A stretch of 64,000 nucleotides of DNA from Allacma fusca. Taxonomy: Eukaryota; Arthropoda; Collembola; Symphypleona; Sminthuridae. This document shows positions 5,912-64,000 of this stretch, one piece after another. Position 1 is the stretch's first letter, and every line of letters starts with the position of its first letter. The stretch covers positions 52,687,067 through 52,751,066 of the forward strand of contig OX359245.1 in assembly GCA_947179485.1 (NCBI GenBank). Reading direction: 5' to 3'. The position numbers and the translations under genes are program-made. Under the pieces are notes generated by a model. That model was not told the DNA's origin, did no database searches, and saw only the letters and a list, made by a program, of their open reading frames with translations.

Positions 5912-7364
5912 TAGTGTTTCTGAACGGTCCAAAAACATGGACTCGACCCGACTCGTTTTCCCGAACCGAAAAAAATTCCTTTTCTGTTCTCGAAACCGGA
6001 ACCTATATGTTCGAGTCCGGGACATTCTTGCATTCCCGGAACCGATCCGGATTATAAAATCGGTTCCCGGACCGGTTCCGGTTCCTTCCCGAACCGGCAG
6101 AAAATGCGTAGGATTCATTTTCATGGAAGTCAAAATTGTGTCGCGTTTTCAAATTATAGCTCCTCACGGGTCGAGTAGTTATCCATACCGTACTCGTACT
6201 TGGAACCGTACTCGAATTGTCGGGTCAAATTCCCGCTTGACCCGGACTTGTGTCTTCAAGTACGAGTAAAAAATCCTGTACTCGGAGGACGGTATTATAT
6301 TTCTAAATTTTTTACCGAACTTGGACCGTACTTACGAGTATAAAACATTTATACCGACCGACCCGTACTTGAACTCGTACTCGAGTATCAAGTACACCGA
6401 AATAAAATTTTTTGGATGTTATTTTTTGTTAAACAGATATTGACATAGAAAACACATAGTAGATTCAACTAACAAGAATTTGTAACTGCAACTTACGAAG
6501 TGTTTGCAATGAAAATTTTCTCCAACGAGATTAATAAAATGCCGATGAACAGATCAAGATTTGATTCTGCCAGCCATATCGACTGGATTCTCCTCAGTCA
6601 GGTCAATCTCACCTAACCTCCACTAATTCTGCCCCTCTCCTGTTCCATTATATTTTACGGCGATAGGTAAGTACTTACAATTAGTAACTACAGTAGTACT
6701 CAATTCGGAGCTGTAACAATAACTTACGCTGTAGGTGTAACGTTTCATGCTATTCGGAGTAATTTTGAATTTAACCGCTTTTCCTTTTTTACTTCGGAAA
6801 AACAACTTTTTTTTGTAATCAAGGAAATATGGATGTGGACTTTGTGCTGGAGGAAATTACTCGAGTATCAAATGTAAATCCAAGTACGGGTTCAAGTACT
6901 TTTGAATTTATGTCCCGAACTTGTACTCGTGCTTTGATTCAAGTACTTTGAACGTACTCGTACTCGCTCTGATACTCGTTAGAAATATACTCAAGTTCGA
7001 GTACGAAAACGGATACTCGCCCGACGAGTACAAGTACCAATTTAAGTTGATACCGTACTCGACCCGTACTCGTACTCGAACTCGAAACTCGAGTATCTAC
7101 TCGTACTCGTGAGGAGCTATATTTCAAATGATAGTTGACAAATGCTTGACAAATGCATGTTTCGCGTTTTCATCCAAAAAGGCAGCTTTAACAAACCCTT
7201 GCCGAAAACTTTCGGTTTTGATTTTTCTAGCCGAAACCGGTCCGAATGTAACGATTCTTTAAACCGTTGACCCGAAACCGGACCGAAATTTAACGGTTCT
7301 TTAAATCGTTGACTCGAAACCGTACCGGAACCTCGGGAATTCCCGACACCGAACAGAAACTCTA
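5912..7364. mobile_element. hAT-like motif-armed element (GGTTCCGG arms)
   Basis: A perfect 8-bp target duplication, CTCGCGAT, lies at 5904-5911 and 7365-7372. The ends are inverted: TAGTGTTTCTGAACGG on the left and the complement of CCGAACAGAAACTCTA on the right. Both arms (about 5930-6110 and 7195-7355) carry degenerate GGTTCCGG/CCGGAACC words. The flanks join into the same sequence that is uninterrupted after the copies at 12.7 and 25.9 kb. A GAGTAC element is nested inside (6155-7121). No transposase is seen, so it is non-autonomous. Open frames across the arms are repeat translations. Confidence 0.82.
6155..7121. mobile_element. Nested hAT-like motif-armed element (GAGTAC arms)
   Basis: The ends read TATAGCTCCTCAC...GTGAGGAGCTATA, flanked by the 8-bp duplication TTTCAAAT at 6147-6154 and 7122-7129. 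The arms are degenerate GTACTCGTACTCG/CGAGTACGAG arrays (about 6165-6395 and 6855-7105), with a central unique segment of about 450 bp. The same terminal sequence and motif occur in the element at 35,084-35,751, so they are one family. It sits inside the GGTTCCGG element, which dates it as the later insertion. Confidence 0.82.
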
Positions 7365-7372
7365 CTCGCGAT

Positions 7373-8011: not shown

Positions 8012-8804
8012 AATTCTCTCAGCTATTGCATGGGGAGGTGCTGTTCTACAGGAAATAATTCTACACGAAAGTCATGTTGATCAGGACGGAAACTTTTACA
8101 CTTCCCGGAAGGGAATTCCAGACTTAACAATGTATCCCTTTTATCAGGAAATTGTTCGGTATTGTCAAAACTCAAGGTAAATTAAATAAATTAAATACTT
8201 TTGCTTACTTCAATTTTACGTGCATATCATGGCTGAAAATGCCAAATGGTCGAATGCTTTTGTATAGTTTTTGCTCTTCAGTGATGATATGTAATCACAT
8301 ATATTATGTTAGTACAAAATCAAAAAGTTGAAATAATGGTTTTTGGAAATTATTAGGGTTATGTTTTACAACAAAGTCAATTATACGGGAAGTTCATATT
8401 TCAACAACCCCGGGAAAATATGTCTTAACATCAGTACATTGTTCAAATCAGCCCGTTTTTATGGCAATCCAAATACAACAGAGGACGGCGTCAGCCTATT
8501 TGCAGAACATTATTTAGTAGGGGAGGAATTTTATATTGATGGGTCGCCATATGCAGGAATTACCAAGACAATTTCATCGTTGGGATATTCCGGGAAATCA
8601 GCGTGGACAGTTTTTGAAGGTGTGAACTTCAATGGCACATCTGCTTGTCTGCCACCACCGGCGAATATTCATGACACGTCTTATTATTACAATATCACTG
8701 AAGATCTAAAAATATCAACCATCGGATCCCTTTTTAAAGGATGTGTAACTCACGTAACTCCTGAGTTGAGATCACAACTGCTGGAGACAGCTATTAGAAA
8801 TTAA
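8012..8804 (+). CDS. Secreted crystallin-like protein, copy 2 (start unclear)
   Basis: Exon 1 is about 8012-8176, with donor AG|GTAAAT. Exon 2 is 8357-8804, after acceptor tattag. The phase is as in the intact copy (split Arg codon), and exon 2 has the same length (448 bp). Exon 2 encodes three Greek-key-like motifs: YNKVNYTG...SARFYG, FAEHYLVGEEFYID...SSLGYSG and FEGVNFNGTSACL...TIGSLFKG. Exon 1 encodes the conserved EIILHE...IPDL segment, but no in-frame ATG aligns with the one used at 19,141. A TTTTCAG just upstream could be the acceptor of an unseen first exon, or the start has been lost. AATAAA follows at about 8820. It is expected to be secreted if a signal peptide is supplied, and may be a young pseudogene. 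Confidence 0.6.
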
Positions 8805-10595: not shown

Positions 10596-10603
10596 ATCTT
10601 TGC

Positions 10604-11080
10604 TAGTGGTCGGAACAGTTCAGTTCAGTTCAGCTTTTTCCAGTTCAGTTCAATTCACATGCTGAACTGAATTGAAACTACATTTTCAATTCAGTTCAGT
10701 AAAAACTAATTCAATTCAGTTCAGTTCAAAATTTTTAACTGAATTGAACTGAACTGATTCGAAAACCAGCGGTTTCTACAGATATACTTACAAATGCGCT
10801 TTCTAGAAATGGCGGGAGTATTTTCCAAGCGCACAACAAAAGGAAGCTAAATTAAGTGTACAAATCGCCACCTAAAGGATCTGGAGAGCTTGTAAACGGT
10901 GGATTTTTTTTGAAATGTTTGGGGCAGAATGAATTGTTTGAACTGCAATTATTCAAGGAAGACGATTCAGTTCAATTCAAAGTTACGAACTGAATCAATC
11001 GGTTCAATTTCATCTTGAATTGAATCGAAAAAGTAGTGAATTGAATTGAACTGAATTGAACTGAATTGGTCCGAGTACTA
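10604..11080. mobile_element. hAT-like motif-armed element (CAGTTCA/GAATTGA arms)
   Basis: A perfect 8-bp duplication, ATCTTTGC, lies at 10596-10603 and 11081-11088. The ends are TAGTGGTCGGAAC on the left and GGTCCGAGTACTA on the right. The arms consist of degenerate CAGTTCAGTTCA and its complement, and a central unique segment of about 180 bp separates them. It shares its TIR with the element at 62,141-62,638, although the array motifs differ. Confidence 0.85.
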
Positions 11081-11297
11081 ATCTTTGCCCAGACAAGACG
11101 GAGAATAATTTCGTGAACACTGAAGTTCAGGTGGATTGTAAGTAATTTGGATGATAGATACATATTTGGATTTGTAAAATGTGGTAGAGAGAATAATGGC
11201 ACTAGCAATGAGGTGGATATCATGAATTGTTTAAAATAAATAAGGATTCCTGTACTGACTTTTCTATGCAGTAACAAATGTAAGTTAAGGTACGATT

Positions 11298-11764
11298 TAG
11301 GGATGCCAATGGTCTGGTCCGGACCATTTATAATGGTCCGTTATTGGTCTGGTCCGGTCTGGTCCCAGATTTTTATGGTCTGGTCCGGTCTGATCCAACG
11401 CTTGGACCAGACCAGATACAATTGGTCCAGCTTCAGGACCAGACCAGACCAGACCACAGGACCATGGTCTCAAAAGTACGCAAAATAAAAATTTATGAGT
11501 TAACAAAATCCCATGGAACCACTTAAAAATGTCTTTTCTGGGGATAAAAGAAAAGTGTGACTGGATAAAATGTGATTATTTAATTGCTCACAATAGTATT
11601 CTGGACCATGGTCCGGACCATGGTCTTTGGTCTGGTCTGGTCCGAACGACTGGATCAGACCATTGGTCTGGTCCAAAAACTGGACCAGACCAATGGTCTG
11701 GTCTGAGCTTTGGACCAGACCAGTTTCATAAAATCTGGATCAGACCAGACCATTGGCATCACTA
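11298..11764. mobile_element. hAT-like motif-armed element (GGTCTGGTCC arms)
   Basis: A perfect 8-bp duplication, GTACGATT, lies at 11290-11297 and 11765-11772. The TIRs are TAGGGATGCCAATGGTCTGG and its near-complement ending GGCATCACTA, which fits the usual hAT end pattern. Each arm contains about 150-180 bp of GGTCTGGTCC/GGACCAGACC words, and the centre is about 110 bp of AT-rich unique DNA. The several overlapping open frames here are artefacts of the array. Confidence 0.87.
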
Positions 11765-14275: not shown

Positions 14276-14285
14276 CCAGATTTGG

Positions 14286-15683: not shown

Positions 15684-17258
15684 CCCAGTAAACCACGATA
15701 GGTTGGACTAACGTTAAACCCTGACGTTGGAATGTTTCCATCGAAATTTAATGTTGTATAAATGCAGGACCACTAACGCTACGGTTTTAATGCTTTATTA
15801 GCATTAACCTTCCGTTTTCGAGAATTGCTTGAAAATTCACTTGCCAATAACGTTGACGAAACGTCAACAGATAATGTTGCATAACCATTCATGCAGAAAC
15901 GCTGGATTAATGCTTGTTTAGCGATAGTGTTAGCGGACATGCGTTTAAACAAGGATGCGTCAACCTGTTTGAGAGGGAATAGTCCTGTTTGACCGTTGCT
16001 GCATCCAATAAGTAGTATAAGCACACCACAAGCTCGCTGTGTTTGTACAGCAGTCAAAATTAATTTGCTGGAGTTAACAACAAACTAACTAAAATAAAAT
16101 TAACTTTTGTTCGGAGAAACAACATTTATTGTGCTGTTTTCGTCTGCATTAAAAGGTAAGTGTGTTACCTGAAATAATTATTAACTTTGTTCCTATCATG
16201 CATTTTATATTTACAATTAGCTTATAGTGTTAATTATTTATTGAATTTGTGGATTGTTTATCTTAGCTAATTAATAAAAATGATATATCATGCTTTGTAA
16301 ATAGGGTTCTTTGAATAATTTCAGTGAAGTGGCCTGGTAAGAAGAGGTCAATACTGATGGCCAATTGACAACTGTGAGTCTTGCACTGATGATGCTGAAT
16401 AAAGGTACATAAGGTGCACTTAATTATTTCTATTGATGTGTACTTAAGTATATAATTATTTACATAATTATACAATTCTTTGAGTTCTCCGAAATGCATA
16501 CATTTAAAATACATTCTATACAAAATAAGTTTTGTATTTTGGGTTTGTAGGAGTTAAAAAATGTCGAATAGTTATTATTTTGGGATATTGGGATTATGTG
16601 TTCAATTAAAATATTTTGCACTTTCAATGCAATTAGTAGATTATTTTGTTTTATAAAGTTTGCAGTTTGGTTTAAATGCTCCTGTATTTTGAATATTTTT
16701 TAATAATATATTTGGGCCCCTAATTATGTAATTATTTCATGTAAACTTTATTATGTATGTATATTATTTTTGTTTTCACAGCCTCATTTCGCAGCTGCCT
16801 CTAATTTATTCGGAAATTCCAAAGGGACTGACGGTTTGACAGCCGTCGAGATTCGTGACAACTTCATTGATTAATATTTTTGTGTTTATGCCATTTCCAA
16901 ATTATTGAATTATTTCTAAGTTCATATGTACATCATGTAAAAATTATAATAAACAAATGTAATTGATGATAAAATGTTGAAGGTAGTTTAACTTAAGTAT
17001 TATCATTAAAAGTAAACCATATAGTTCAAAAATATAAATAATCTAGCGTTCGACTACTATTACACGATTCACGTTCCATGTGTTGATTCAACGTTAGAAA
17101 TTGACGTTGCACCAATCTTAACTAGGAGTGCAACGTGAGCGTTACGCAGGCGGACATCTAAACGTTTGGGAAACGCTAAGTTTAATGTTAGATAAACCAT
17201 GCTAACGTTAGAATTTTACGTTGGTACAATGGTTCTACAACGCTCGTGGTTTACTGGG
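15684..17258. mobile_element. Element with CCCAGTAAACCACGA ends and ACGTTA motif arms
   Basis: The terminal inverted repeats are CCCAGTAAACCACGA on the left and TCGTGGTTTACTGGG on the right. The arms (about 15,700-16,060 and 17,045-17,245) are rich in AACGTTA, GACGTTG and AGCGTTA words in inverted arrangement. The centre is AT-rich and unique. The whole segment is missing at the corresponding place in unit III. Flanks do not show a clear 8-bp duplication (at most GA/GA), so the superfamily is open. No transposase is seen, and the 92-codon frame on the minus strand at 15,779-16,057 overlaps the arm and is rejected. Confidence 0.7.
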
Positions 17259-19140: not shown

Positions 19141-19872
19141 ATGAGAGTATTAATATTTCTATCAGTCCTTGCCATGGGGAGAGCTGTAATCCAGGAAATA
19201 ATTCTACGCGAAAGCAATGGAAATAACCATACTTTCCAGGAGAGTATTCCAAACTTGAGTATTTACTCGTTTAGAAAAGATATTGTTCAGGCGTGTCAGA
19301 GGACGAGGTAAATAAAATCAGTATTTGCTAAACATATTCCTTTAATTGGCAGTATATACATATGTACATAACTAAATGGTACTTATGTGAAATGAAAACG
19401 TGATAAAAACTTTTTGTCTGTTAGAATTGTGTATTACTCCGAAATCAATTATGGGGGAACGACATATCGAAATGAACCTCAAGAATTCTGCTATAATTTC
19501 TCTTCAACATACAAATCAGCCCGTTTTTATGGTCATCAAAATACGGAAGAGGACGGCGTGAGTCTCTTCACTTCAATTAACCTTCGAGGAGAAGAAATCT
19601 ATGTTGCGTGGTCGCCCGTATCCGGTATTACTAAAAGAATTTTATCATTGGGATATTCGGGCAAATCGTCCTGGACTGTTTTTGAAGGAACAAATTTTAA
19701 TGGCAAATCTGCTTGTTTGCCACCACCAGCGAAAATTAATCATACATCTTATTATAACGAAATCTCTAAGGATTTGAACTTATCTAGAATTGGATCCCTT
19801 TATAGAGGTTGTGCAGCTAATTTTACTCTAGAGATGAGAACGCAATTGCTGGAAGCAGCTGTTAGAAATTAA
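19141..19872 (+). CDS. Secreted beta/gamma-crystallin-like Greek-key protein, intact copy
   Basis: Exon 1 is 19,141-19,307 and exon 2 is 19,425-19,872, joined by a 117-bp GT-AG intron that splits an Arg codon. The product has 204 residues. It opens with a short hydrophobic signal peptide (MRVLIFLSVLAMGRA). Exon 2 holds three segments fitting the crystallin signature [YF]xxxx[YFL]xG followed by a conserved Ser/Gly turn: YSEINYGG...SARFYG, FTSINLRG...LSLGYSG and FEGTNFNG...IGSLYRG. Exon 1 may hold a fourth, divergent repeat, giving two domains. The mature protein has few Cys and several N-glycosylation sequons. The family assignment is pattern-based inference. It could bind calcium or act as a structural, adhesive or defence protein, and nothing here decides which. 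A TATA box lies upstream and AATAAA about 100 bp past the stop. It is the only copy with no lesion. Confidence 0.85.
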
Positions 19873-26106: not shown

Positions 26107-27795
26107 TAAAGGTCTTCACGGATCGGATTCTGGTCTCATCCGTATCCGATCCTATCCGATCCGGTAAATTCCGGATTTCAAAAACACCCATCCTATCCGA
26201 TCCGATAGAGTCGGCTACCATTTTATAAGTATCCGTATCCGATCCGGAATGTTCGGATCGGATAAAATCTTCGATCCGGTCCGGCGGATGCATTTACGGA
26301 TGCATCCGATTCGATCCGCGGATATCCGCGGATATCCGAACCTTACTTTAAGAAACCGTAAAAGAGATAAATCTTATATATTGTGCATGTTTCTAATTTT
26401 ATCACATTCATATCAACATGAAAATTTTCAAATTCCGGTGTATCGATAATTACCTCGTTACATGCAAAACCAATTTTGCTTCCAAAAAACTTAAAACAAA
26501 TAGATTATGCATTTAATATAATTGACACGGCTTTCCTTGATTCTTTTGTCTTGAATATTTTTCCACCAACTGTTTAAGTTCATGATGGAAATAAGTACGA
26601 AGAAAAATAATTAAAAATGTAACAACAAATTCACGGAGAATTTGAACAACTGATGCCGGACACGTTGCATGCGTGTATGGAGGGCGAGAATTCTCATGAA
26701 TGCATTAAAGTTTTAAATTAGAGGTGGGATTCGGCCTTGACTTCAGGCCCGAACCCAGAAGAAACCCGAACAAATACTCTATTAGCCCGCCCCGGCCCGC
26801 CAACGGGCTAAATATTCGATATTCAACCCGGCGCGTTTTATGCACTTCACATTTTGTGAAACCCGAACCCGTTAAAAACCCGGTCTCCAAAATATTTTGC
26901 AACCCGAACCCACTAAAAACTCGATCTTTAAATAGTTTTAAAACCCGTTGAAAACCCGGCTTTTTACTAACAATTGAATGCGCTGTGAAACCTTTATTTA
27001 CACATTCTATTATATTTGCATATACTGTCCATCCCAATAAACGTACACACACGGAGAAAAACTTTTTATTAGCTCTGAAAATTATTGAAGATAAACTATC
27101 AAACTTAAGGTATCGTTTCAAAATGTTTAAGCATGTGTACGTATTAAATACTGAACCATTATTTAGCTTTGGCATGAATATACATGAAAGCAATGCTTGA
27201 ACTCTGCGCAACGTCAAATATGCATGCCATTTATCTGTCCTAAATCATATTCTAGTAGAATTGTCGGGTCATTTGTAATTTGTGACCCGCCGGAAACCCA
27301 AACTGAAAAATATATAAGTGCATGCCCAAGGCCGATGTTCATCCGGTTTCATTGTTTTAGTGCAGCCCGAACCCGGTCGGAGCCCGACGTAAGTTCGTAT
27401 TTGCAGCCGGAACCCGGCTAAAAACCCGGCCGGGTCGGGTTCGGGCCGGCTAGAATCAAATAGCCCGCTTCCGGGCCCTCCTCTATTTCAAATCCTAGAA
27501 TCGCTCTACTATAAAATGCATGACAATATGATAGCAATATTCCTCACGAGAGGGCTCGTCTAAAAGACGGATATCAGCGGATATCCGCCGGATCATCCGA
27601 AAAAACAGAACATGCTCATCCTATCCGGTCGGATGCATTCATTACTGCATCAAATCCTATCCGAAATAAATACACGGATTCAAATGTTGCATCCGGTCCG
27701 CCATATGTTTGACGGATAGGATTAATTGTGTTTTCAATCCTATCCGAATCCGATCCGAATCCGTCCGGATCAATCCGATCCGATGAAGACCTTTA
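26107..27795. mobile_element. hAT-like motif-armed element (GATCCG arms), with a nested element
   Basis: A perfect 8-bp duplication, GACAAAAA, lies at 26,099-26,106 and 27,796-27,803. The same site is single-copy and unoccupied in unit II. The ends are TAAAGGTCTTCACGGATCGG and the complement ending TGAAGACCTTTA. The arms (26,118-26,335 and 27,555-27,785) are GGATCCGAT/ATCGGATCC/GGATATCC arrays. Between them lies unique DNA plus the nested GGGTTCGG element. No intact transposase is seen. Confidence 0.88.
26719..27485. mobile_element. Nested hAT-like element (GGGTTCGG arms)
   Basis: The left end is TAGAGGTGGGATTCGG and the right end is CCTCCTCTA, flanked by TTTTAAAT (26,711-26,718) and TTTCAAAT (27,486-27,493), 7 of 8 matching. 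The arms are CCCGAACCCG/CGGGTTCGGG arrays. It belongs to the same family as 54,346-55,105. The long frame on the minus strand (26,705-27,217) is translation through the arrays. Confidence 0.78.
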
Positions 27796-30512: not shown

Positions 30513-32117
30513 CAGGGACTAAACAACCCTATGGTACAGGTGGTACAGTGTACCCCCCCCCCTGATTATATCCAGGGTGGTGCAATATATGCAATGTACC
30601 CTACTCAATTTTGACAACAAATGTCAAGTTCCGAAATTAGTAGCTCTAAATTTTCCAAAATCAGATATTCGTTCGATCAGTTAGTAACCTAAAATGTAAT
30701 TACATGAGCATGTGCCCAACCATGTCAGAAAAACATTCGCGAAAACGTTTCGCTCATATCAGTTCATTGCATCATGTGGTATCAGTCGTCTTTGGTACTT
30801 CATTCAAGCTTCTAACTATAAGCTAGAGAACCTTAAGGTTTAGGTTGTGCACAGAACATACGGTGAAATGATGGCTATGAATTGAAGCACAGTAAAGTTT
30901 CATTTGAAGACAATGAAGAATTTTCAGAAGTTAGTGTTCAGCCATGTTGTTCGACGAGATTAACGGTTAAAAGGCCTAGTGTCACCACTACATTGCAAAA
31001 TTATTAGGGTCTCTTAAAATTTTTGCACACACGCGCGAAGTCAGCCGACAAATGTGCAACTACATCATCTGGATTATATACATAGCTCAAAAAAGGGAGC
31101 TCTTATTTTGGTTTCCTCCTTCTACAAAGCATTTTGAACCCAACCGAGATTTTGTGTACAATCACACAAGCACAGCGTTCTACCGTCGGTGGCACTGTTC
31201 AGGCTTCGAAGGTGTGCATTGACAGTTTTAGTAAGCAGAAAGGTCAGAATGTCTTCAGTGGGCTTTGGAGTCGCATGGAGGAAGCCTGTGACCGTTTTCA
31301 TTTAGAACGTTCTTCTCTTGGCCAAATCCGCAAAACACCAAAGCGGTATGAAATAAATAATTCCCGCTTACAACTGCAGAAGCAAAGTACCAAAACATAT
31401 TTAACAATTCGATCGACCTTGTTGTTGCGGAACTCAAGCGTCGTTTTGACCAGCCCGGGATCAAGAAATTCCAGGAGTTAGAGAGCATTTATCTTAACTG
31501 GAATCAACTGGAACCAAAATCCCGGGAGAACCAAGTAGATGCTATTTCAGATTTGCAAAGTTTCAACACTGAGAGATTTAATTTTAAAATGACATGATAT
31601 GATACATGGGATGGAAGGAGTAGACCGAAGCTCTATAACAGGATTTTTGTCATGGTTTAAGGACAGCGCCCCAGAAGTTCGTCTAAAGTTCACCGAAGTT
31701 AAGGAATTTTAAAAAATTTTAATAGTGCTCCCAATCAGCTCCCGCCTCAGCTGAGAGATCATTTTCCACTTTACGGCGAATAAAAACATATCTAAAATCC
31801 GTAATTGGACAAGAAAGACTAAACCACTGCTGCGTCATTCACTGCTACCCAGATATTGCAAAGCAACTGGACATTGAAGAGCTTATGAGGACCTTCGTGA
31901 GTAATGACTACCGCCGAAAGGTTTTTGGAAAGTTGTAATGCTTTTTACCAAATGTAATGACCGCACTGTTCTGTTCTAGATAAATTCAAAAGTCACAACA
32001 CGTAAATTAAAGGCTAAAAAACTTATGAAAAAATATGGCAAATTTTGTCATTTATTTGAAGCATTTTTGGCGAGGGTAGTTGTACCCCCCACTTTTCTCG
32101 GCGTGGTTTAGTCCCTG
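30513..32117 (+). mobile_element. hAT element with degraded transposase
   Basis: The TIRs CAGGGACTAAAC and GTTTAGTCCCTG are perfect over 12 bp. The duplication AATGCCAT (30,505-30,512 and 32,118-32,125) is exact, and unit II keeps the empty site. The element carries transposase remnants (31,134-31,938). Unlike the motif-armed elements it has no short-motif array. It is a true hAT copy, now defective. Confidence 0.9.
31134..31938 (+). pseudogene. hAT transposase remnant (ZMYM1/DUF4371-like)
   Basis: Three blocks in shifting frames read as one hAT C-terminal half. The first is around QRSTVGGTV...CIDSF..(31,170-31,370). The second, around LVVAELKRRFDQPGIKK, runs to about 31,590. The third is the dimerisation segment SAERSFSTLRRIKTYLKS followed by QERLNHCCVIH (31,745-31,860), ending at TAA 31,936-31,938. 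The ASAERSFS...RIKTYL signature is diagnostic of hAT proteins. At least two frameshifts separate the blocks, and the N-terminal DDE part is missing, so it cannot be functional. Confidence 0.85.
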
Positions 32118-35083: not shown

Positions 35084-35751
35084 TATAGCTCCTTATCGAG
35101 TTCGAGTATACCGGCGAGTATCGAGTACGAGTTCGAGTCGAGTACGGTCAAATTTTTGTGAATACTCGATACTTGAAATGGGTTTCGAGTACGGGTAACG
35201 ATTTTTCACATACTTACGAGTACGAGTATCAAACGAGTACGAGTCCAATAAAAATACTCATAAGGGTTATCGAGTTCGAGTTCGAGTACCACATGCTCAA
35301 TATACGAACGCGTACACGTGCAAACAAGTGTTGCAAACTTTTGAATTTCCAGTAAAGAGACGAAGGTGCTAATATGAAATTGTCACAAAAAATCGTTGTA
35401 TCCACCAGTCACGACTCTCTCAGGTTTCAAAGTATAATCTCTCTCCATTTAGTACATTACTATTAAAGTTAAAACAATTAGTCTTGTTATTATTAAATAC
35501 TCGAGTATGAACACTCGAGTCACGGCACGAGTACGAGTACGGGATTTCGGTATTTACAGTTCCGTACTCGCGAGTATGAAACAAGTTCGGGTTCTGAACT
35601 GGAACTCGGTCGCTTATTTCAAGTATTTTCCTGAGTACTCGTATATGTGGCGAGTACGAGTACCTTGGATTGGAGTCCATACTCGATGCTTCGATTTCGA
35701 GTACGAGTTCGAGTACGGTTCCGCAAGGTAATCACTCAATAAGGAGCTATA
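35084..35751. mobile_element. hAT-like motif-armed element (GAGTAC arms), second copy
   Basis: A perfect 8-bp duplication, ATCTGATC, lies at 35,076-35,083 and 35,752-35,759. The ends TATAGCTCCTTATCGAG and AATAAGGAGCTATA match the element at 6155. The arms are CGAGTACGAGTTCGAG and its complement. Unit II carries the empty site (near 17,835). Confidence 0.88.
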
Positions 35752-36722: not shown

Positions 36723-38383
36723 TAGTGTTGGCAAGTGCGATACTGCGATACGATATTATCGCAAATATCGCCAAAATTATGTGCGATATTAGTGGCGATA
36801 CTTATCGCCAATCATGTCGAGAATATCGGGTATCGCCAATGAAAATTATTTTAAACTGCAGGTACTTTCTGACATATTTCTTTCGTGCGAGTCAAGTAAA
36901 AGGGTACATAAGCCAGCATGCCGTCGCTGAAGAGGCAAATTGGAGTATGTGCGCATGCTTTTGTACAGCACTTAGACCATTTTGCCTCTTCATCGACGAT
37001 ATCCTCTACCTTTTGTTTTTACAACAATACAATTCCAGACCTTGTAGGAGAAAAAACTTTTGAACGGTTCAATTAAAAATTTTTAAACAAGCGTAGAATG
37101 TCTCATATAAACTCTAGATGTGCAACTTGAGTTTACATTTTTAAATTTCCACAATTTTTAAATTTATAAAAAATTAGAAAATTTAACTCATATATTAGTT
37201 GCCAATAGGCATGTTCATATCGTTCGATTTTAAAATATCGTTCATATCGTTATCGTTCTCTGAAAAATTACCGATAACGATATCGAGGAACGATATAACG
37301 ATATATCACGTTGTGGCTTCTGGCATTATTTAACGAAAATTAATGAAACTTTAATTTCGTATACAAGCTAATGATTATTACTAAGGCTCCTTAAGAACCA
37401 AATTTTCAACTAAAATTAGCACAGATTACATTTTATTCCAAATACATGAGTCAAAAAGGCATTGAGTTGAAAATATGTACAACTCAAAGATAGTAATGCA
37501 AGGCATCAGCACCAGTAAGAAAACAATAAAACTACACATAATAATTACACCATAGAATTTCTGTTCATCATTACATTGACAACTGACGCCCGAATTCGGA
37601 TAACCTTATTTGGGAACTTAAGTCATTCAAGTTTCTAACTTTTTTGAAGTTTTCAAACTAAAGTCAACAAATTAGCGAAAATCCAAAATTATAGTTGCAC
37701 ATCTTTATTCGGAAAAATGTTAAATCCTGTGTATTAGAATGAAGGCCAGTTCATTAATTTCAACTGTTAAATGGATCAGGTATAGAATAAAAAAATTTGC
37801 AACATTTTTCGACCGAATTTGGTGCGGTATGACTTTATCCACAAGCTTTGCTAGCATTTTTGTCAAAAAAATGTGCAATTCTTGTTATTACTCGCGAATG
37901 TACGATAAAATCATGTGACGATATATCGTCGGGAAACCCCGATAAATATCGTGGTATATCGTTTCTAAAAAATGTACGATATGGACGATAATATCGTATC
38001 GGTATATCGTTATGAACATGCCTAGTTGCCATACAACCACATTTTTGAAAATTAGAAAGTATTTTAAAAATTTCAGTAACATCACATGACAGCCACAATG
38101 GTTGTCTTATTGTTAGATGTAATATAGGTATAAAATTCAATATTTTGCATACTATCTTCGCTCTCCATGTAATCACCCAGTGATTACAAGATTCAGATTT
38201 TTCAGATATCATGACAAATCTAATAGCTAGTTCCGTTGATGTTAACTCTTTATACTTCATGTGCTAATTCACTTTAGCAAAAAGTATCGGCGATACCCGA
38301 TATTATCGCAAATATCGCAAAATTGCATTCTACCGATACCGATATTCCCGATACTGACAAACTGGCGATACTTGCCAACCCTA
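36723..38383. mobile_element. hAT-like motif-armed element (GCGATA arms) with nested element
   Basis: A perfect 8-bp duplication, GTGCAGAC, lies at 36,715-36,722 and 38,384-38,391. Unit II has one copy of the corresponding site near 18,803. The TIRs are TAGTGTTGGCAAGT and the complement ACTTGCCAACCCTA, a typical hAT end. The arms are GCGATACGATATTATCGC-like arrays of about 110 bp each. A second element (37,206-38,024) is inserted inside, and a palindromic AGAGGCAAA...TTTGCCTCT segment lies at 36,926-36,994. Confidence 0.9.
37206..38024. mobile_element. Nested hAT-like element (ATATCG arms)
   Basis: The ends are TAGGCATGTTCATA and TATGAACATGCCTA (14-bp perfect inverted repeat), flanked by GTTGCCAA (37,198-37,205) and GTTGCCAT (38,025-38,032), 7 of 8 matching. 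The arms carry ATATCGTTATCG words. It is inserted inside the GCGATA element and has its own related but distinct motif. The 141-codon minus-strand frame at 37,835-38,260 crosses the right arm and is not a gene. Confidence 0.82.
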
Positions 38384-45235: not shown

Positions 45236-46299
45236 ACTCCCAGAATTTATTGCAACAAATATTCCACACTGTAAGAAAATTACTGGTTACAATCAACTTT
45301 CACAATAATTATGGATACAGTAAACTCGAAAACCTATGTTAAATTATGCTTCAAAAATAGCTGCCACAGTGTTTAATTACTGGGTGTCTTAATTCATCTA
45401 CTGTTTAACAATATTAATGAACAATTGTTCAAAAACAATACGAAAAGGATCACGAGTCTGAAAAAAATGCTTAAGAAACAAACGCAGTTTTTGTAATACG
45501 GGACGTCAAAAGTCACCTCTTAATGTATTGCACAGGTTTTGCCACCTTTTTTACTCACAACCAGCTTTTATGTATGTACTCTTATAATTCAAACGTTCAA
45601 GTACTGTTCAAGTATTCCTGAAGAATTATTATACTCAAATCATTAAATCAAACTAATTACCGTTACAACAATCCTATATACTTGTTAATGGTATATTTTA
45701 CATATTTTATATCACACACAAGAAAACTTATTCCATTTTGGTCAGATTTATATGTGTAAGGGGCCGAAATCCTAAATTAAATAGCTTTTGAGGTCTTTTT
45801 GTAGACCAATTCTGGGTGGTAATTAATCTGTGCCATGTGAATGGTAGCAGCGCTTGCTGTCTCATTAGCACATTCAAATGAGTTACTCAACAAAATATTT
45901 GATTCCTTAAATTTGTAGCAAAATTCTTTTCCAGTTTTTATAATTTTTACAATGCATTTCACTGTTGATTTTTGACATTTCGTATTTCCGATACTACTTC
46001 CTCCTAAACAAAGTTCCCTTGGATTCGTATATTGTACTCAATATACCCTTTACATCAATTTTCATTAAAATTGTGGAATAGCTTGTCAAGTAAATCTGTA
46101 AGTTCCTGTAAAACAAATGCATAAACATATCAACGAAAATGTAAATGTTAACGACGCATGGGATAATGTGAAACAAAAAGAGGCTGCGTGCATGACAAAA
46201 ATTCAAATGGGGCTCATGAAATAAAAAATTCATGTTGTGCTCAACATGGCACTTGTTGTAGAGTAGGCTGCTTTCTTGATTTTACGTTTTCATAAAAGT
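45236..46299. other. AT-rich DNA between two GTACC arrays
   Basis: No gene is recognised. It may be the internal region of a single motif-armed element whose arms are the two flanking arrays, but the ends are unresolved. Confidence 0.3.
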
Positions 46300-46560
46300 A
46301 CCCAAATATTTAAGGTACTTGGAGATCAGGTGCGGGTATATCAAGCACTCGTACCTGGTCCTGATGGAATCGACTCAAATAGGTATTCTTCCGTACTCGT
46401 TCGCATACCCGTACCTGTACCCCTGTTGCGGGTACAAAGTGAATGTACCCAGAAAGGACCCAAAACGTTTGGGTACAAAATTTATGTACCCATTTTGTTC
46501 CTGGACCTGGACGTGTACCCATATATCCGGGTACTTCCTGTACCCGTACCCATGAGGGGC
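46300..46560. repeat. Second GTACC/CCCGTACC array
   Basis: GTACCCGTACC, GGGTACAAA and CCTGGACCTGG words. The right end, GGGGCACTA, resembles an hAT-like terminus, but no matching left end was seen. Confidence 0.55.
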
Positions 46561-46984
46561 ACTAATTTAGATTTTTTGGCTGGTTTGTAGTACTTTATAC
46601 TGTATCGTATTTTAATGTATGTTAGATATTCTAATTGGATTTTAAATACGACTCAATGTGAGGGCCATCAATTTAGTTAAATTAGTGTCCTGTATGTGTG
46701 AGAAGTACAAAAATGTATGGATCGGGCCAACAGGTGGGAAACAGAACCAGAATGTATTTGAGAAAGTGATCTGAAGTTTCAAAATCAAGATCAGATTTGA
46801 ATGTAATTTATTAATATTGATTTTCAAAATCGGCGTGTTTCAGAGAAGTTTGTTAAGCAAACATTGATTTTTAATTTGGTTGACCTTATATATTTGGTAG
46901 GGTTGTGATGTCTTGGCATTGCAGTTTATGTAACCGCATTGTACCATTTGATCACAAAAGGAAAGTAGTTTTGTATTTAGTAGA

Positions 46985-47205
46985 GTTTTAGTAGTTTAGT
47001 TTTAGTTTTTTTAGTAGTTTAGTTTTAGTTTTTTTAGTAGTTTAGTTTTAGTTTTTTTGTAGTTTAGTTTTAGTTTTTTTAGTAGTTTAGTTTTAGTTTT
47101 TTTAGTAGTTTAGTTTTAGTTTTTTTAGTAGTTTAGTTTTAGTTTTTTTAGTAGTTTAGTTTTAGTTTTTTTAGTAGTTTAGTTTTAGTTTTTTTAGTAG
47201 TTTAG
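46985..47205. repeat. 23-bp minisatellite, about nine copies
   Basis: A head-to-tail array of AGTAGTTTAGTTTTAGTTTTTTT, almost perfectly conserved. One unit near 47,056 lacks a few bases at its junction. Confidence 0.92.
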
Positions 47206-47744
47206 TACAGAAATGGATATTCAGTTTTGTCGAAATCTTTTAATCGAAAAATTTTAATCCGTTTAACTCTGCTAAAATAAAGACGACTATTCGTCCAACT
47301 TGTGTTGGTTGGCTAGCCTAGTCTGGACTGGGGTTCTCATGAGTTTCTGATCGTGCCATGGCAGATATGTTAGAATTTGATCAATCAGACAAAGTAACTA
47401 ACAATATCCATATATAAAAGGATTTGTTTGTGTGATCCTGGAAGCGCTCGAACAAATTCGTCTCATATCTGCATCGATGTTACTTCCTTTGGAGCATCCG
47501 TACGAATGGTGTATTTTCTCAACAGAGTTTTACAACATTGAAATAGACTTAGACACCAGAAGATACAGAAAATTATAATAGAGTTGTTTCCAATGGGAAC
47601 TTACGCAAACGGTGCTTGATGTCGTTTGTAATCAAATATCTTACGAAGACACGTCTCTCACTTCCTAAGAAGTAAGAAAAGTCAAAAATTCACCCACTCC
47701 GGTTTGCTGATTGGGAGTGGGTAAGTTGCATACTCACAATTAGA
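47206..47744. other. Spacer, diverged copy of 44.5-kb block
   Basis: It starts with the block matching 44,480-44,660. Beyond about 47,400 nothing is recognised. Confidence 0.3.
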
Positions 47745-54345: not shown

Positions 54346-55105
54346 TAGAGCTGGGGCCCGGAAGCGGGTTGTTGGCCCGCTTCCGGGTTTTTGGCCCGCT
54401 TCCGCGTTCGGGTTTTTGGCCCCGAACCCGGCCCGGCTAGGTTTTTGGCCGGGTTCGGCTGTAAATACGAACTTATGTCGGGCTCCGACTGGGTTCGGGC
54501 TGCATTAAAACAATGAAACCGGGTTAAGATCGGGCTTGGGTCTGTATTTATTTTTCAGTTCGGGTTTTGGGCGGCCCAGAAATTACCGACCCGACAATCC
54601 TACTAGAATAGAATTTAGTACGCGTATTTTCACGTATGTATATTTATGGTAAATAATAGTTCATTCTATTTAATACCTACACATGCTTAAGCATTTTGAA
54701 ACGATCCCTTCAGCTTGATAGTTTATGTTCAAAACCTTTTAGAGCCAAAAAGAAGTTTTGCTCCTGTAGAGCTCGCTTATGAATGTGATGAGTAGGAGTG
54801 GATAGAATATGTATGATGTAAATTTAATAGAATATGTAAACAAAGGGTTCACATCGGATTCAGTTGTTACAAAAAGCCGGGTTTTAAAACCATTTATAGA
54901 TCGGGTTTTTAGCGGGTTCGGGTTCTACAAAATTTGGAGACCGGGTTTTTAACGCGTTGGGGCTTTGCAAATTTTAAGGTACATAAAACGGGCCGGGTAG
55001 AATATCAAATATTTAGCCCGTTGGCGGGCCGGGTCGGGCAAATATAGTATTTGTTTGGGTTACTTCCGGGTTCGGGCCTGAAGTCATGCCCGAATCCCAC
55101 CTCTA
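54346..55105. mobile_element. hAT-like motif-armed element (GGGTTCGG arms), second copy
   Basis: A perfect 8-bp duplication, ATGACGAG, lies at 54,338-54,345 and 55,106-55,113. The ends are TAGAGCTGGGGCCCGG and the complement CCCGAATCCCACCTCTA. The arms are GGCCCGCTTCCGGGTT/CGGGTTCGGG arrays with an AT-rich core. It is the same family as the nested copy at 26,719-27,485. Confidence 0.88.
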
Positions 55106-58700: not shown

Positions 58701-61700
58701 GTATATTAATATTGTTTAAGCAATCTTAACGACTACAAATCATGAATATAACTGCTGGTTACACTCACCAGATGAGTGCAATACTAATGTGCACATGTCT
58801 AAAATATCACTACTAACCACTTACTTATGGAAATTAGCAAATTAGACTGCAATCTTTGCATTCAAATATCATTGATTCCGATTCAAGAGCCTAAAGTTTG
58901 AACAATAGCTTGCTTGGGTAGCTCGGAATTTTCTCGAGTGGGTGCAATGCAAGCACTTGCACTTATATTATTTTACTACACTCGTTAGTAAGGAGGTATT
59001 TACATATGTTGCACTCATCCGGAAGTGCTGAGAAAATCTGAAATAAGATTTAGTAGATCCCGTGTTTTAGTCCTTCATATAGTGTTCCTGCAGCTTATTC
59101 TGCTAATCACCTAGAATAACTGCGGACGAAATTTCTATTATTTTTCAAAGTATTCATGTACAAAAAAAACTTGATTCATCAAACTAACTTGTTTAGGGTA
59201 ACTCAGGATAACTTGTTTAGAAAATGTTTCAAAATCAAGTCAAGATCGAGTCAAGTTCTCTAAAATAACTTGACTTGAACGTAGCTCTGGTCACTGCTAT
59301 CGCAAATTAACTTTCTCGTATTCTAGTCCACAAATGATGAGAAAATATGGTTTTATCTTTGTCATTTTCCCTTACTGATTTTCATGATTCTACACTTTAA
59401 AAAAAATAATAAAAAAAGGCATGAAGCAAATTCTAGTTAAGTGCTATTAAACAAGCCATTTCGTTGTGATGAGTAGTATCGAACAGCAAAACAAAGGACT
59501 TTCCTTTGTTTCAATTTTTTAACGTACATATATTCTGGTGTTCACAAAATATTTCCAAGTTTTTTTTTGTAAAAACGTTTTAAGGGGAATCGTTTACACA
59601 TTTTTATTTATTTCCCTATTCTAAAAATTATTCTGAAATTTTCAAGCTTATTTATAACTGTAATAATTCTTGAAACATGTCACTCCTCTCACTTTTGTAC
59701 CATAAATGTAATAATTATCGTGTGTAACCGCTTGGGCCGTAACACCGCTTGAACAGCTGTTTATAAATTTATATGGAAATGCCAAATATTAAGACTAGTA
59801 CTTCTTGGCATTTACAAATTACAGTAAAACCAGTATATAATAGTTTTCCTAGGGACGCCAAAATTTTACCACTATAGACAGGGACCACTATATAAGTATA
59901 TAGTGGTCAGGAGTCACTATATAAATACATTCACAGACATACAGGCATACCAGCAGGAATCCGACAAAGTTTTACTTCTATACATTATTGAAAACCAGTT
60001 ATTTTACACTTTTTTTAAATAGTCACTAATTTTTTGGTCATTTTTAATACTTCAACAAGCTCACTCTGGGATTTCCCATTTTCAATACTTTCAAAAACTG
60101 TAAGTTTCTTAGAGAGATTGAGAACTTTGCGTAACTTCGATCGAATCATGCATCGAACCTTATAAGTGCAGTTTCAAAAAATAGTTAATACAATGCCTTT
60201 ATTATACATAGCATGCAAATTATTTTAATCTTTAGGGTGGACTGCTTATAGATCATTTCGCCGTTAGGTTACATTGAATAAGGATGATTTTCTCTTTAGG
60301 ATGCATTTCATAAAAATCATTTAACTTTGAAAAGTTCAGTCACTTGACTTTAGTGAAATTGCATAGAGATCACTTAGCCTCTTCACCGAAGTTTTATACT
60401 GTAAAGATTGCAAGTTCAACTACGGTAAATTGCATAAACTAATTTGCTCATTTCAGCAAGTGACAGCTACCACCAGGGGTCGGATTTTTGTAAATCTCCT
60501 GGGAAGATCATTTCTGAATTTCCCTGCTGAATCAAATGTCCCTGCTGAGAGGTACTCACCTATTTCAAAAATTCCTGCTGAAAAAATTTCAACGATTTTC
60601 AAAATTCCTGCTGGCAAAAATAATTTTCCTACAAGACGTCAAATCCCTGTCAAGTAAGGTCAACAAATTTAAAAATTCCTGTTTACCTAACCTGTAAACA
60701 AATTTGAATGTTACTGCCAACAAAAGTTCAACGATTTTAAAAATCCCTGTTTGTAAAATAGAATCCCTACCCTTTGGGATTTTCCCTACCAGAAATATTT
60801 TTTCCCTGGGTAGAATCTTCCCGTCTTCCCACAAAAATCCGACCCCTGGCTACCGCATGACTAGTAATAACTTGCATTATCACTTATACTTATTGCAATT
60901 TCGGTTACACCCATTCTTTGCACCTTGAATCGAGCTTCCATTTTATACTGCCTTGAAACAAATTGTCTAGTAAATGGGAGAATTGAATATTAGATTTCTT
61001 ATGTTACAGGTTACGAGGTTAGAAGCATGTTTCACGAAAACATGGTGACCAGAACATCATAAAATCTACAGCTACACATACTAAAAAGCCTTCTCTTTCA
61101 ATTACAGCAGTCAGAATTTCAAAATGCCACCAAAATTAGTGTCCTCAGGTCAAACCTATCCGCGAATATCTAGATTTTCATCGACAAACTCAACCATTGA
61201 TTTTTAAAAAATTGTACAAATTTCCGTCATAAATCGAAACTTAAAAATTAAATTATTTGATTGGAAAATGGAAAAAGCTTGGCAAGATGGAAAGAGTTCG
61301 GTTACATTTTGATTTCGGACAGTTCGATTAGTTTCTAGCTTCATTGTATTGTCTTTATTATAATTGACTATTGTTTTCACAAATGAATCGTGTTTATAAT
61401 AACATTTTTGATATTTGTTTTCTTCGAGTTTCACACCACTGTGAAATAAAAATGTCCTGAAAAATAAATTGAAGTGAAAATGGAATGTATCTGCTTGACT
61501 ATAAACAAGGCATAAGCAATTATCCGTTACATCAATTTACGAATCACTACATATTCGTGTTGTGTAAATATGAGGTATAACGTATGTAGATTGAAAATGC
61601 TGCGCAGTATTTGCCCGCCTAATTGAAAATGCCTAAAATGACTACCCACATGCCCAAATTCAGGCACGTGGGCAGCTTTTGAAAATGCCCTGATTTTGGG

Positions 61701-64000
61701 CATTTTGACCAGGTCAAGTTGGGCACTTTGGTCATTTTTTGGATTTTCATGGCACCAAATTCGGATCACTAGTTTAGATTCAGAATATCCTAATGTATAG
61801 GAGAGCCGCGAAAGAAAAATAACAAATGTAAATTTCTGGCTATTCGCTTAATCATTCATATTAATTGCAGAAACATTGATAATTTAATTTCAATGACATG
61901 AGATGGTATTTATCTCCAATATGAAAATCAATTTCAATCACAGCATGATTGATATACCGAATAAAAATATAATCGACCCCAATTACTAAACACTTCAAAT
62001 TTCAACAGAATACACATCTCCGTCCACCCATCAGCAATGTAAATATCTACATCTATTGGTGCATATGTATATTTCCAGGATGGAGGAAGTTCATTTTAAG
62101 CCGTTACATAAGTCAAAACCACAACAATGTATATACTTGGTAGTGGTCGGATCGATTCAATTTGATTCGAATTTTTCAATTTGATTCAATTTGAAGCTTA
62201 TTGAATCGAAAAACCGATTTTCGATTCAATTTGCCCCAAAACAATTCAATTCGATTCAATTCACTCAGTGAATCGAATTGAATCGTAAATCGAACGATTC
62301 AGGCGGGAAAATGCAAAACTTTCCTTATGTTACTGGAGTGTCGTATACACATTATAAAGGGTATAGTAAAAGCTACGCTAAAATAACAAACGTTGTGGTA
62401 TACGTAGTATTTGGAATTTGAATATGCGGAAAAGAAGTACCCGTGCGCAGCCGAAGCGGTTTTGATGAATTGTTTGAATTGCAATTCACATGATATGATT
62501 CGATTCAGTTCAGTACCCAAATCGAATCATTCGATTTGGCTTTGCTGCAAATCGAATCGAAATACTACTGAATCGAATTGAATCGAATCGAATCGAATCG
62601 AAAATTTCCAATTCTGAATTGAATTGGTCCGACCACTAAATTACTTGGCAAGACATTTTCGAACGCTTTTCCTCCAAAATTGCAAAGACATGCCAAATTG
62701 TACAAATTGTGCAATTTAATTCCACGCTTCTGACCAAAATGCCCAATCGCCCTCGAATCAAAATGACCTATTGCTCGCTTTGAAACGAAAATGCCGAAAT
62801 GCCCGGGCATTTTGGTCGGGCAAGTTGCCGAAAATGCCGCGCATTTTCAACTCGACATACTAGGTATAGCTAAACTTGGTTGTCGAAAGTAGAAATTAAT
62901 AGATGAAAATATACATACCAAATCACCACACCACCAGTAATTCTGTAGGTTTTGAGGTGGAAAATCAAAAATGTTCTTGAGAAGTGGAAAATCCTCGCCA
63001 GCATTTCGATTTCTGTCATATCCATATATAGTTTTGATAAATCCATACATGGTTATGAAAACGCGATGAAACACTTTGAACTCCATGCACATTTTAATAA
63101 TAAAATGGCTTATTTTATCCCTTGTTGAAGCCAACGGGGGCTATATACAAAATAATAGTATTTGATAGTGATGTTAGTGTGATAGTAGTGTTAAAATATT
63201 GTATTGGTTATCAGAACAGATAATCGTTTTGTATGATAAAGAATTATGTATTTAATTTATTACCGTTTTTGAATTTAAAAGGCTTCTCAGGAAAGCCAAT
63301 AAGGCTCTTGCAACCCATAACTGCCTTGTGAAATGTTCAGGCAAACTCAAAATTCCTGTTTCTATTTCTTCCCAGTTGACAGAGAGCTGAAACGAGCGTC
63401 TAATCTTTCTCCTAATCTCGAACAAATTTGTCATAAAAGCTTCGGGATTTTTTCCAACATTATAACATAACTTATTCTGTAGGATTGGTTCACTAATTTC
63501 AACATGTCCATCGTATTCATCTTCTTTATCATCTTTGTCTTCAACATCTTCATCGTTATCATCTTCACCGTTATAATATATCTGTACATTAGAGCCAGTT
63601 CGCCATAACGCTAAGACCTCAAAATATTTTTTATTCTCAAAGCATGCCGCAGTTCTCAACATGTCAAGTAAAATATCCATATGCAAATCAACTATATCAT
63701 TAAGTTCAAGAAATCGACATATTGTGCTCATTGCTCTCTCTAAGGCATTTGTTTTTCGTACACATTGCTGAATTAATCTATGTATCATTAAATCACCCGA
63801 ACTACCCTTTGTCACGATTGAATAATCAATTAGTACCTTAAGCCCTTTCATCACAATTGGATTCTTAACTTCCTCCTTGTACTTATGACGAACGTCAATC
63901 ATTGATCCACTGTAGATTGTATCAATCAGCCCCAGAGACAAATCATCGGGGCTAAGACATGCTATGATATTCAGAAGTTCAATCGCAATATCACCATTGT
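55763..64000 (-). CDS. NB-ARC/STAND-like protein, 3' part (5' end beyond the window)
   Basis: The minus-strand exon model is >64,000-63,264, 63,140-62,919, 58,594-58,423, about 58,189-58,062, 57,973-57,816, 56,221-56,038 and 55,972-55,763 (stop). Codon phases agree at every junction. The donor at 58,422 is GC (AG|GCAAGT), and the acceptor expected near 58,190 is CG instead of AG, so that junction is doubtful. The first exon has GDIAIELLNIIACLSPDDL and MIHRLIQQCVRK, typical of the winged-helix end of NB-ARC STAND ATPases, then an acidic run EDDNDEDVEDKDDKEDEYDG. Later exons have unknown domains. GFIKTIYGYD (62.9-kb exon) and GFIKAIDFPD (58.5-kb exon) look like internal repeats. A role in innate sensing would fit the family but is inference. 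The 4.3-kb intron 58,595-62,918 is filled with mobile elements. Confidence 0.6.
56222..56751. other. Intronic DNA of the NB-ARC-like gene
   Basis: AT-rich DNA between the 56.2-kb exon and the Tigger-like element. Nothing further is recognised. Confidence 0.3.
56752..57502. mobile_element. Tigger/pogo-like MITE with TTATAACGTC motif arms
   Basis: It starts CAGTCGACTCTCCTTATA and ends TCCTTATAAAGACAGTCGACTG, inverted relative to each other, with TA on both sides as the target duplication. These ends are typical of pogo/Tigger elements of the Tc1/mariner superfamily. The arms contain CTTATAACGTC, TTATAGCGTC and TTATAATGTC words, and the centre is AT-rich. There is no transposase. It lies in an intron of the minus-strand gene. 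Confidence 0.78.
59168..59292. repeat. Small AACTTG/CAAGTCAAG motif block
   Basis: AACTTGTTTAG words on the left are mirrored by TCAAGTCAAG and ACTTGACTTGAACG on the right. The right end, GAGCTCTGGTCACTG in complement form (CAGTGACCAGAGC), looks like an hAT terminus. The left end is missing. Confidence 0.45.
59820..59940. repeat. Pogo-like terminal fragment
   Basis: ACAGTAAAACCAGTATATAATAG, then repeated CACTATATA words in both orientations. It is probably one end of a pogo/Tigger-like element. Confidence 0.45.
60474..60848. mobile_element. hAT-like motif-armed MITE (CCCTGCTGA arms)
   Basis: A perfect 18-bp TIR, CAGGGGTCGGATTTTTGT, is flanked by GCTACCAC (60,466-60,473) and GCTACCGC (60,849-60,856), 7 of 8 matching. 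The interior is repeated TTCCCTGCTGA, AAAATTCCTGCTG and AATCCCTG words. It lies in the large intron. Confidence 0.85.
60857..61599. other. Large intron, middle part
   Basis: No gene or repeat is recognised. The 76-codon minus frame at 61,204-61,434 has no support. Confidence 0.3.
61590..62860. mobile_element. Motif-armed element (AAAATGCCC arms) with a nested element
   Basis: The arms at 61,590-61,745 and 62,640-62,855 are AAAATGCCC/GGGCATTTT arrays. The inner ends TTGAAAATGCTGCGCA and the complement CGCGCATTTTCAA are inverted repeats. A clear target duplication was not found. The element at 62,141-62,638 is inserted next to its right arm. Confidence 0.6.
62141..62638. mobile_element. hAT-like motif-armed element (GATTCAAT/GAATCGA arms)
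   Basis: The ends TAGTGGTCGGAT and GGTCCGACCACTA match those of the element at 10,604, but the arms are GATTCAATTTGATTC/GAATCGAATC instead of CAGTTCA. The flanks ATACTTGG (62,133-62,140) and TTACTTGG (62,641-62,648) match at 7 of 8, with two extra A on the right. It is nested in the AAAATGCCC element. Confidence 0.78.

What the first reader, a model, noticed from the sequence alone, without database searches (positions are those of the whole stretch)
5912..62638. A class of hAT-like elements whose two arms are degenerate short-motif arrays in inverted orientation
At least eight elements in this window (5912, 6155, 10604, 11298, 26107, 35084, 36723, 54346) share one design. They have TIRs beginning TAG/CAG or similar, exact or near-exact 8-bp target duplications, and 100-250 bp at each end filled with one degenerate motif of about 5-10 bp, inverted at the opposite end. 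Each family has its own motif. Foldback-type elements with repetitive arms and subterminal transposase-binding repeats in hAT elements are established. A whole cohort with family-specific, rapidly changing arm arrays is not something I recognise. The arrays may be expanded transposase-binding sites.
Basis: partly seen in the sequence, partly recalled or inferred. Interest (0 to 1): 0.88.

Follow-up and report, generated by a model that had tools for sequence, protein, structure and literature searches.

The report
hAT transposons with binding-site arms
A springtail genome holds many hAT "cut-and-paste" transposons whose two ends are packed with a short DNA word that differs from family to family; the words are probably docking sites for each family's own transposase, so the genome may record how transposon DNA-binding specificity changes.

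Summary
All eight elements exist and carry exact 8-bp target duplications. A median 46% of each arm is covered by words found in the opposite arm, against 7-8% of interiors and flanks (27 elements). The genome is Allacma fusca.

The arms are no MITE oddity. Of 20 hAT-transposase loci fetched, ten have mapped ends; all ten show arrays, eight passing the held-out test both ways. Of 19 further loci cut upstream of the transposase finger, 16 show one. Window elements 33857 and 62141 match both ends of two autonomous elements.

One claim is wrong: behind the tips the arrays mostly run the same way, not inverted (16 of 20 families). A palindrome often lies 11-29 bp from one tip, as in the Hermes left end. 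Finger similarity tracks word similarity, but so does the catalytic domain.

Best reading: dense subterminal transposase-binding arrays of Ac-type hATs, a new variant of a known kind. Binding itself was not tested.

The parts
5912..7364 (.). Non-autonomous hAT-type element; TSD CTCGCGAT, tips TAGTGTTTCTG/TAGAGTTTCTG; arms of CCGG/GGTTCCGG-like words; palindrome centred at bp 25 of its right end
6155..7121 (.). hAT-type element nested in 5912-7364; TSD TTTCAAAT, tips TATAGCTCCTCACG; arms of CGAGTA/TACTCG
10604..11080 (.). hAT-type element; TSD ATCTTTGC, tips TAGTGGTCGGA/TAGTACTCGGA; arms of AGTTC/AATTC units; member of the TAGTGGTCGGA family
11298..11764 (.). hAT-type element; TSD GTACGATT, tips TAGGGATGCCAATG/TAGTGATGCCAATG; arms of TGGTC/GACCA
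   Evidence: 868 copies of the tip in the genome, control 0
26107..27795 (.). hAT-type element; TSD GACAAAAA, tips TAAAGGTCTTCA; arms of ATCCG
   Evidence: both ends match L021 at 80-81% over 271 and 293 bp
35084..35751 (.). hAT-type element of the 6155 family; TSD ATCTGATC, tips TATAGCTCCTTAT; arms of CGAGTA/TACTCG
36723..38383 (.). hAT-type element; TSD GTGCAGAC, tips TAGTGTTGGCAAGT/TAGGGTTGGCAAGT; arms of TATCGC/GCGATA; holds 37206-38024
   Evidence: 107 copies of the tip, control 3
37206..38024 (.). hAT-type element nested in 36723-38383; TSD GTTGCCAA/GTTGCCAT (7/8), tips TAGGCATGTTCATA; arms of ATCGTT/ACGATA
54346..55105 (.). hAT-type element; TSD ATGACGAG, tips TAGAGCTGGG/TAGAGGTGGG; arms of GGGTTCGG/CCCGG words
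62141..62638 (.). hAT-type element of the TAGTGGTCGGA family; flanks ATACTTGG and AA+TTACTTGG (7/8 after a 2-bp shift); arms of GATTC/AATTC units; derivative of an autonomous element like L022
   Evidence: ends match L022 at 95% over 169 bp and 88% over 249 bp
30513..32117 (.). TSD/TIR element without array arms (CAGGGACTAAAC tips), a contrast inside the window
   Evidence: held-out 0.8 and 1.2; coverage 4%
60474..60848 (.). TSD/TIR element with at most a weak array (CAGGGGTCGG tips; duplication 7/8)
   Evidence: held-out 0.0 and 2.9; coverage 16%

Best explanation
The window elements are non-autonomous members of a large and diverse set of Ac-type hAT transposons of the springtail Allacma fusca. 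The short inverted tips are where the transposase cuts. The 100-200 bp behind each tip is a dense array of 5-6 bp subterminal repeats, most likely bound by the N-terminal BED-like zinc finger of that family's transposase. One end often carries a palindromic pair of the word just behind the tip (in the five autonomous cases with both ends known, on the transposase-start side), and the words mostly keep one polarity along the element, so the two ends differ, as in the Hermes transpososome. Shown here: anatomy, duplications, autonomous counterparts with such arms, concentration of words at ends, palindrome position, polarity, shared unit variants of both arms in one family. Inferred: that the finger binds the word, that the arrays recruit and align a multimeric transposase, and that word and finger change together.
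For: 8-bp duplications with T at position 2 / A at position 7 in 44 of 72 places, p=6e-7. Held-out arm test 24 of 28 against 13 of 4000. Ten of ten autonomous elements with mapped ends show arrays; 16 of 19 further finger loci. Window elements 33857 and 62141 match both ends of autonomous L021 and L022. Palindrome centred 11-29 bp from the tip in 13 of 47 ends against 2, 0, 2, 5, 4 in later bins, and in 6 of 14 later-fetched ends against 1, 0, 0, 1. Polarity direct in 16 of 20 families. Finger-word Mantel r 0.59 over 24 families. Precedents: Hermes BED fingers bind a quasi-palindrome at bp 11-27 and repeats beyond (passages); Ac hexamers in the terminal 200 bp (passages); hAT fingers whose measured motifs match their own subterminal regions (passages).
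Against: No binding data. The finger is not a clear Pfam BED finger: one of ten N-terminal pieces hits zf-BED, at E=0.015, below the cut-off; a PDB profile search gave no BED hit. Word similarity tracks the catalytic domain as well as the finger (0.54 and 0.51; partial for the finger 0.21, p=0.05), and also the tips (0.40), so common descent could explain the covariation. The recognition half of the finger adds nothing over the other half (partial 0.00). Twelve of 20 families with both ends known have no >=6/7 palindrome at either end. L024 has a hAT domain but no array beyond an AT-rich word. L022's interior also passes the held-out test (2.6 and 4.2).
Confidence: 0.8

Rival explanations
1. 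Foldback-type elements: the arms are long inverted arrays that act by pairing with each other (hairpin or cruciform), not as protein-binding sites.
For: Both orientations of the word occur within arms, and the TAGTGGTCGGA family does have inverted arms in 8 of 9 members.
Against: In 16 of 20 non-redundant families, and 8 of 9 autonomous elements, the two arms agree better in direct than in inverted orientation, although in several the difference is small.
Confidence: 0.06
2. Neutral slippage: short words near the ends expanded like microsatellites and have no function.
For: Units are tandem at 5-6 bp, and a longer tandem repeat has grown inside the left arm of L015 (seen).
Against: The same word is at both ends and rare in between, arrays recur in 16 of 19 separately found finger loci, and a palindrome sits at a preferred distance from one tip.
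Confidence: 0.07
3. The words are sites for host proteins or for control of the transposase promoter, not for synapsis.
For: The 5' array lies just upstream of the transposase finger exon; host nuclear proteins have been reported to bind Ac ends (title of a reference printed, paper not read).
Against: The 3' arm has the same word, and gene-less MITEs keep both arms.
Confidence: 0.07

Closest known systems
Hermes (housefly hAT)
   Same: 8-bp-duplicating hAT; many short BED sites (17 and 14 AAGT/C at the two ends), a quasi-palindromic pair at bp 11-27 of the left end, ends not equivalent (PMC10368747, passages)
   Different: Sites are 4 bp and interspersed; here 5-6 bp words are near-tandem, cover about half of the arm and differ between many families of one genome
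Ac/Ds (maize hAT)
   Same: Multiple copies of a hexamer in the terminal 200 bp, bound by the transposase; non-autonomous Ds derivatives (PMC3260210, passages)
   Different: One hexamer family, a few copies suffice; no cohort of different words described in the passages seen
Herves, Tag1, Tol2 (hAT)
   Same: Subterminal motif bound by the transposase (Herves CG/AATTCAT, PMC3143072, passages); Tag1 and Tol2 as cited in passages
   Different: Single elements with few sites
CGGBP/hAT fingers with diverse motifs
   Same: hAT-derived BED fingers with different DNA preferences; motifs of four hAT proteins match subterminal regions of their own elements (PMC8097297, passages)
   Different: Measured across many species; no dense arm arrays described in the passages seen
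Galileo and Foldback elements (Drosophila)
   Same: Repetitive long ends; Galileo's long TIRs hold multiple sites for its THAP domain (PMC3688188, listing and start of abstract only)
   Different: P-superfamily or foldback elements with inverted arms; here hAT, with mostly direct arrays behind short inverted tips

Membership tests
hAT superfamily | 8-bp target site duplication | tested here: met
   8 of 8 listed elements exact; length profile over 23 elements
hAT superfamily | Short TIR of YARNG type (consensus recalled) | tested here: met
   47 ends of 27 families: Y 47, A 47, R 40, G at position 5 39 of 47, counted position by position
hAT superfamily | hAT transposase (PF05699) in an autonomous element with the same ends | tested here: met
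   Shown for 33857 (L021) and 62141 (L022) by DNA match of both ends; 10604 shares tips and word with the latter. Not shown for the families of 5912, 6155/35084, 11298, 26107, 36723, 37206, 54346
hAT superfamily | N-terminal BED zinc finger | tested here: inconclusive
   Cys pair and His conserved but 1 of 10 pieces hits zf-BED, E=0.015, under the cut-off; no PDB hit; structure prediction not available
Ac group of hAT | Target consensus nTnnnnAn (recalled) | tested here: met
   T2 or A7 in 44 of 72 places of 36 duplications, p=6e-7; Buster-type T4/A5 22 of 72
hAT elements with subterminal transposase-binding repeats | Repeats in the terminal ~200 bp | tested here: met
   24 of 28 elements pass both ways; median coverage 46%
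hAT elements with subterminal transposase-binding repeats | Transposase binds the repeats | not testable with these tools
   Only indirect: finger-word covariation
Foldback elements | Long arms that are inverted repeats of each other | tested here: not met
   Direct orientation in 16 of 20 non-redundant families; inverted in the TAGTGGTCGGA family

The most novel reading that the evidence does not exclude
The arms are a genome-readable record of an evolving protein-DNA code: in each of two dozen hAT families the BED-like finger and the many copies of its word, at both ends, have shifted together in small steps (in one clade, read by eye, CCCTCA, CTCACT, GAACTC, GAACTGAA), inside one fixed end geometry (tip, palindromic pair on the transposase-start side, polar array). 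A high number of weak sites would let the word drift without losing binding, which is how specificity can change and how families stop mobilising each other.
Probability: 0.4. Interest if true: 0.8.

Novelty: new variant of a known kind. Interest (0 to 1): 0.62.

Why it matters
Subterminal binding repeats are known from single hAT elements. A genome in which many related families each display their own dense array would let dozens of zinc-finger specificities be inferred from sequence alone, and would make it directly testable how a transposase changes its recognition word without losing its ends. The shared geometry across unrelated words also suggests that the asymmetric end architecture seen in Hermes may be general in hATs.

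Tried and rejected
The control column (148 pairs against 2) is faulty: a reversed, uncomplemented TIR cannot start with the required letters. I do not use it.

A loose TIR rule without the arm condition does not separate signal from chance (11 exact duplications at the right offset, 1-10 at displaced ones).

Finger-specific coevolution is not proved: the catalytic domain tracks the word as well, and so do the tips.

Transposase loci without a clear array of their own: L024 (only an AT-rich word), L019 and L020 (copies of one family; own ends not found, a MITE sits in both); L066, L067, L069. L009, L012, L013, L014, L023, L026, L027 show an array at one or both ends but no mapped duplication. 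The 3' array of L026 belongs to an inserted element of the 60474 type.

The GGTAC array pair around 44961-46631 gave no convincing duplication; a CGTTA pair at 15686-17256 has TIR 13/14 but no duplication.

Rows dropped before counts: the pairs 54253, L013:1651, L020 and the L018 copy of L017; families counted once (20 of 31 rows); in the Mantel tests (24 families) loci that repeat a family or lack their own arms. Family assignment was by eye. L068, L074 and L077 have partial fingers.

Literature searches for such a cohort (listings, plus passages of the papers cited) showed none; the library holds open-access papers only, and listings are capped.
Full report
WHERE IT IS. The window is G000:C1:52687067-52751066 of a 392.7-Mb assembly in 91 contigs.

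THE OBSERVATION. A search for 8-bp duplications flanking inverted tips returned seven of the eight listed elements with exact duplications; 10604 failed its 6-base tip rule and was confirmed separately, also exact. The design recurs at 33857 and 37206 and 62141. The arrayed elements, nested ones counted once, cover about 8.7 kb, 14% of the window (sum of coordinates). Of 6386 overlapping 150-bp windows 726 are array-like (score >= 5), against 19, 11 and 4 in three simulated sequences.

ARE THE ARMS REAL? In 28 elements the best word of one arm was tested in the other: 24 pass both ways at score 2, against 13 of 4000 random pairs. The misses are 30513, 60474, L011 and L028; the last two pass one way only, and their arrays are visible. 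Selection differs: the window elements other than 10604 and 62141, and nine autonomous elements, were picked by duplication and tips alone; L022 and the MITEs in L009, L014, L015, L018 and L019 were picked partly by passing this test. Words enriched in one arm cover a median 46% of the other, 7% of interiors and 8% of flanks (27 elements, interiors where long enough). Neighbouring copies in the same orientation are most often 5 or 6 bp apart (53 and 48 cases). The interiors of 5912 (which holds 6155) and of L022 also pass the test.

AUTONOMOUS RELATIVES. PF05699 scored 150 places, a lower bound; I fetched 20 loci. Nine contain an element with an exact 8-bp duplication around the hAT domain, and a tenth, L022, one with a single mismatch. 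All ten show arrays: TAGGC (L010), CTCTAC (L011), CCTTC (L015, L016), GCCTTG (L017, L018), CTCAC (L021), GATTC/AATTC (L022), GAACTC (L025), CGTTAC (L028); eight of the ten pass the held-out test both ways. L024 has no such array. DNA cut upstream of further N-terminal fingers shows an array next to the finger in 9 of 12 loci and 7 of 7; several belong to one family. Window element 33857 matches both ends of L021 at 80-81%, and 62141 both ends of L022 at 95% and 88%. So in these two cases the arms come from an autonomous element.

COPY NUMBER. TAGTGGTCGGA occurs 1793 times, its reversed control 119. Among the 30 loci cut for it, 18 form nine pairs of exact tips, and all nine pairs show a duplication (six 8/8, one 7/8, two 7/8 after a 1-2 bp shift; read by eye, two of them across two loci). 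Of the 12 single ends, one (L038) has a partner with 10/11 tip and 7/8 duplication; for 11 none was found within the locus. TAGKGATGCCAATGGTC occurs 868 times, control 0. TAGKGTTGGCAAGT occurs 107 times, control 3; in the 40 facing pairs that I counted by eye among the 100 places listed (one of them 7 kb apart), one end reads TAGTG and the other TAGGG, so the ends stay distinct in every pair. Copies share ancestry, so this is not 40 independent events.

END GEOMETRY. Three of the four exceptions are near zero; the fourth, the TAGTGGTCGGA family, is inverted in 8 of 9 members. Reading the ends I noticed palindromes behind one tip. Count: 13 of 47 ends have a >=6/7 palindrome centred 11-29 bp in, against 2, 0, 2, 5 and 4 in the next bins; 1000 shuffles average 1.4, maximum 7. 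This set holds the ends that suggested it, and also six ends fetched later. Among the 14 five-prime ends fetched after the idea, 6 have it, against 1, 0, 0 and 1, and none of 2000 shuffles reaches 6. Two of the six are weak witnesses: L064 belongs to the L015 family and the start of L073 is uncertain. Allowing a spacer of 0-3 bp, 9 of 14 against 4, 3, 2 and 3. Of 20 families with both ends known, 8 have one palindromic end, 12 none, 0 both. In the five autonomous ones of the eight (L010, L015, L016, L021, L025) it is the transposase-start end (with strands). In Hermes two BED domains bind a quasi-palindrome at bp 11-27 of the left end (PMC10368747, passages).

WORD AND FINGER. The N-terminal fingers fall in two groups. 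Finger distance correlates with word distance: r=0.65 (12 families), 0.485 (12) and 0.59 (24). Ancestry is in this: over 12 families the catalytic domain does as well (0.54 against 0.51), and the partial correlation of the finger is 0.21, p=0.05; tips correlate at 0.40 (21 families). The word can change fast: matching open frames of L017 and L022 are 46-70% identical, yet their arm spectra are unrelated (distance 1.07). Within the TAGTGGTCGGA family the two arms of an element share unit variants (cosine 0.855 against 0.564 permuted, p=1.5e-4, nine representatives of 13 elements), so both arms change together.

CLASSIFICATION. 8-bp duplications, tips of YARNG type, an Ac-type target bias (44 of 72; consensus recalled) and hAT transposases in matching elements place them in hAT. 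A transposase partner is not shown for eight window elements. Foldback membership fails on polarity.

MECHANISM. Most likely the fingers of a multimeric transposase dock on many array sites, the palindromic pair and the polarity give the ends different roles, and the catalytic core cuts at the tips. Every step beyond anatomy is inference from Hermes, Ac (PMC3260210, passages), Herves (PMC3143072, passages) and hAT-type fingers (PMC8097297, passages).

NOVELTY. The principle is known. The density, the number of different words in one genome, the shared polarity and the one-sided palindrome across unrelated words were not found described together in the searches (open-access library, capped listings).

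Noticed in passing
36723-38383 and G000:C10:49709323-49710983: The compound element (36723 with 37206 nested) is 1661 bp; another pair of its tips on C10 has the same spacing while most pairs are 0.8-0.9 kb apart, so the compound may have moved or been duplicated as a unit.
   Followed up: no
46986-47206: 23-bp tandem array, 9.7 copies at 98%.
   Followed up: no
44961-45331 and 46281-46631: A pair of GGTAC arrays with no convincing duplication.
   Followed up: partly
34400-34580: An ATCCG array, as in 26107, inside element 33857-34900.
   Followed up: partly
37-2610 (+): 857-aa open frame without a Pfam hit at E<=0.1; looks transposon-like.
   Followed up: partly
8337-8804, 19396-19872, 25145-25747 (+): Three similar open frames of 155-200 aa, seemingly a small gene family; the one scanned (19396) has no Pfam hit at E<=0.1.
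   Followed up: partly
L041, L054, window 62141-62638: Some copies of the TAGTGGTCGGA family have 1-2 extra bases between the right tip and the duplication.
   Followed up: no
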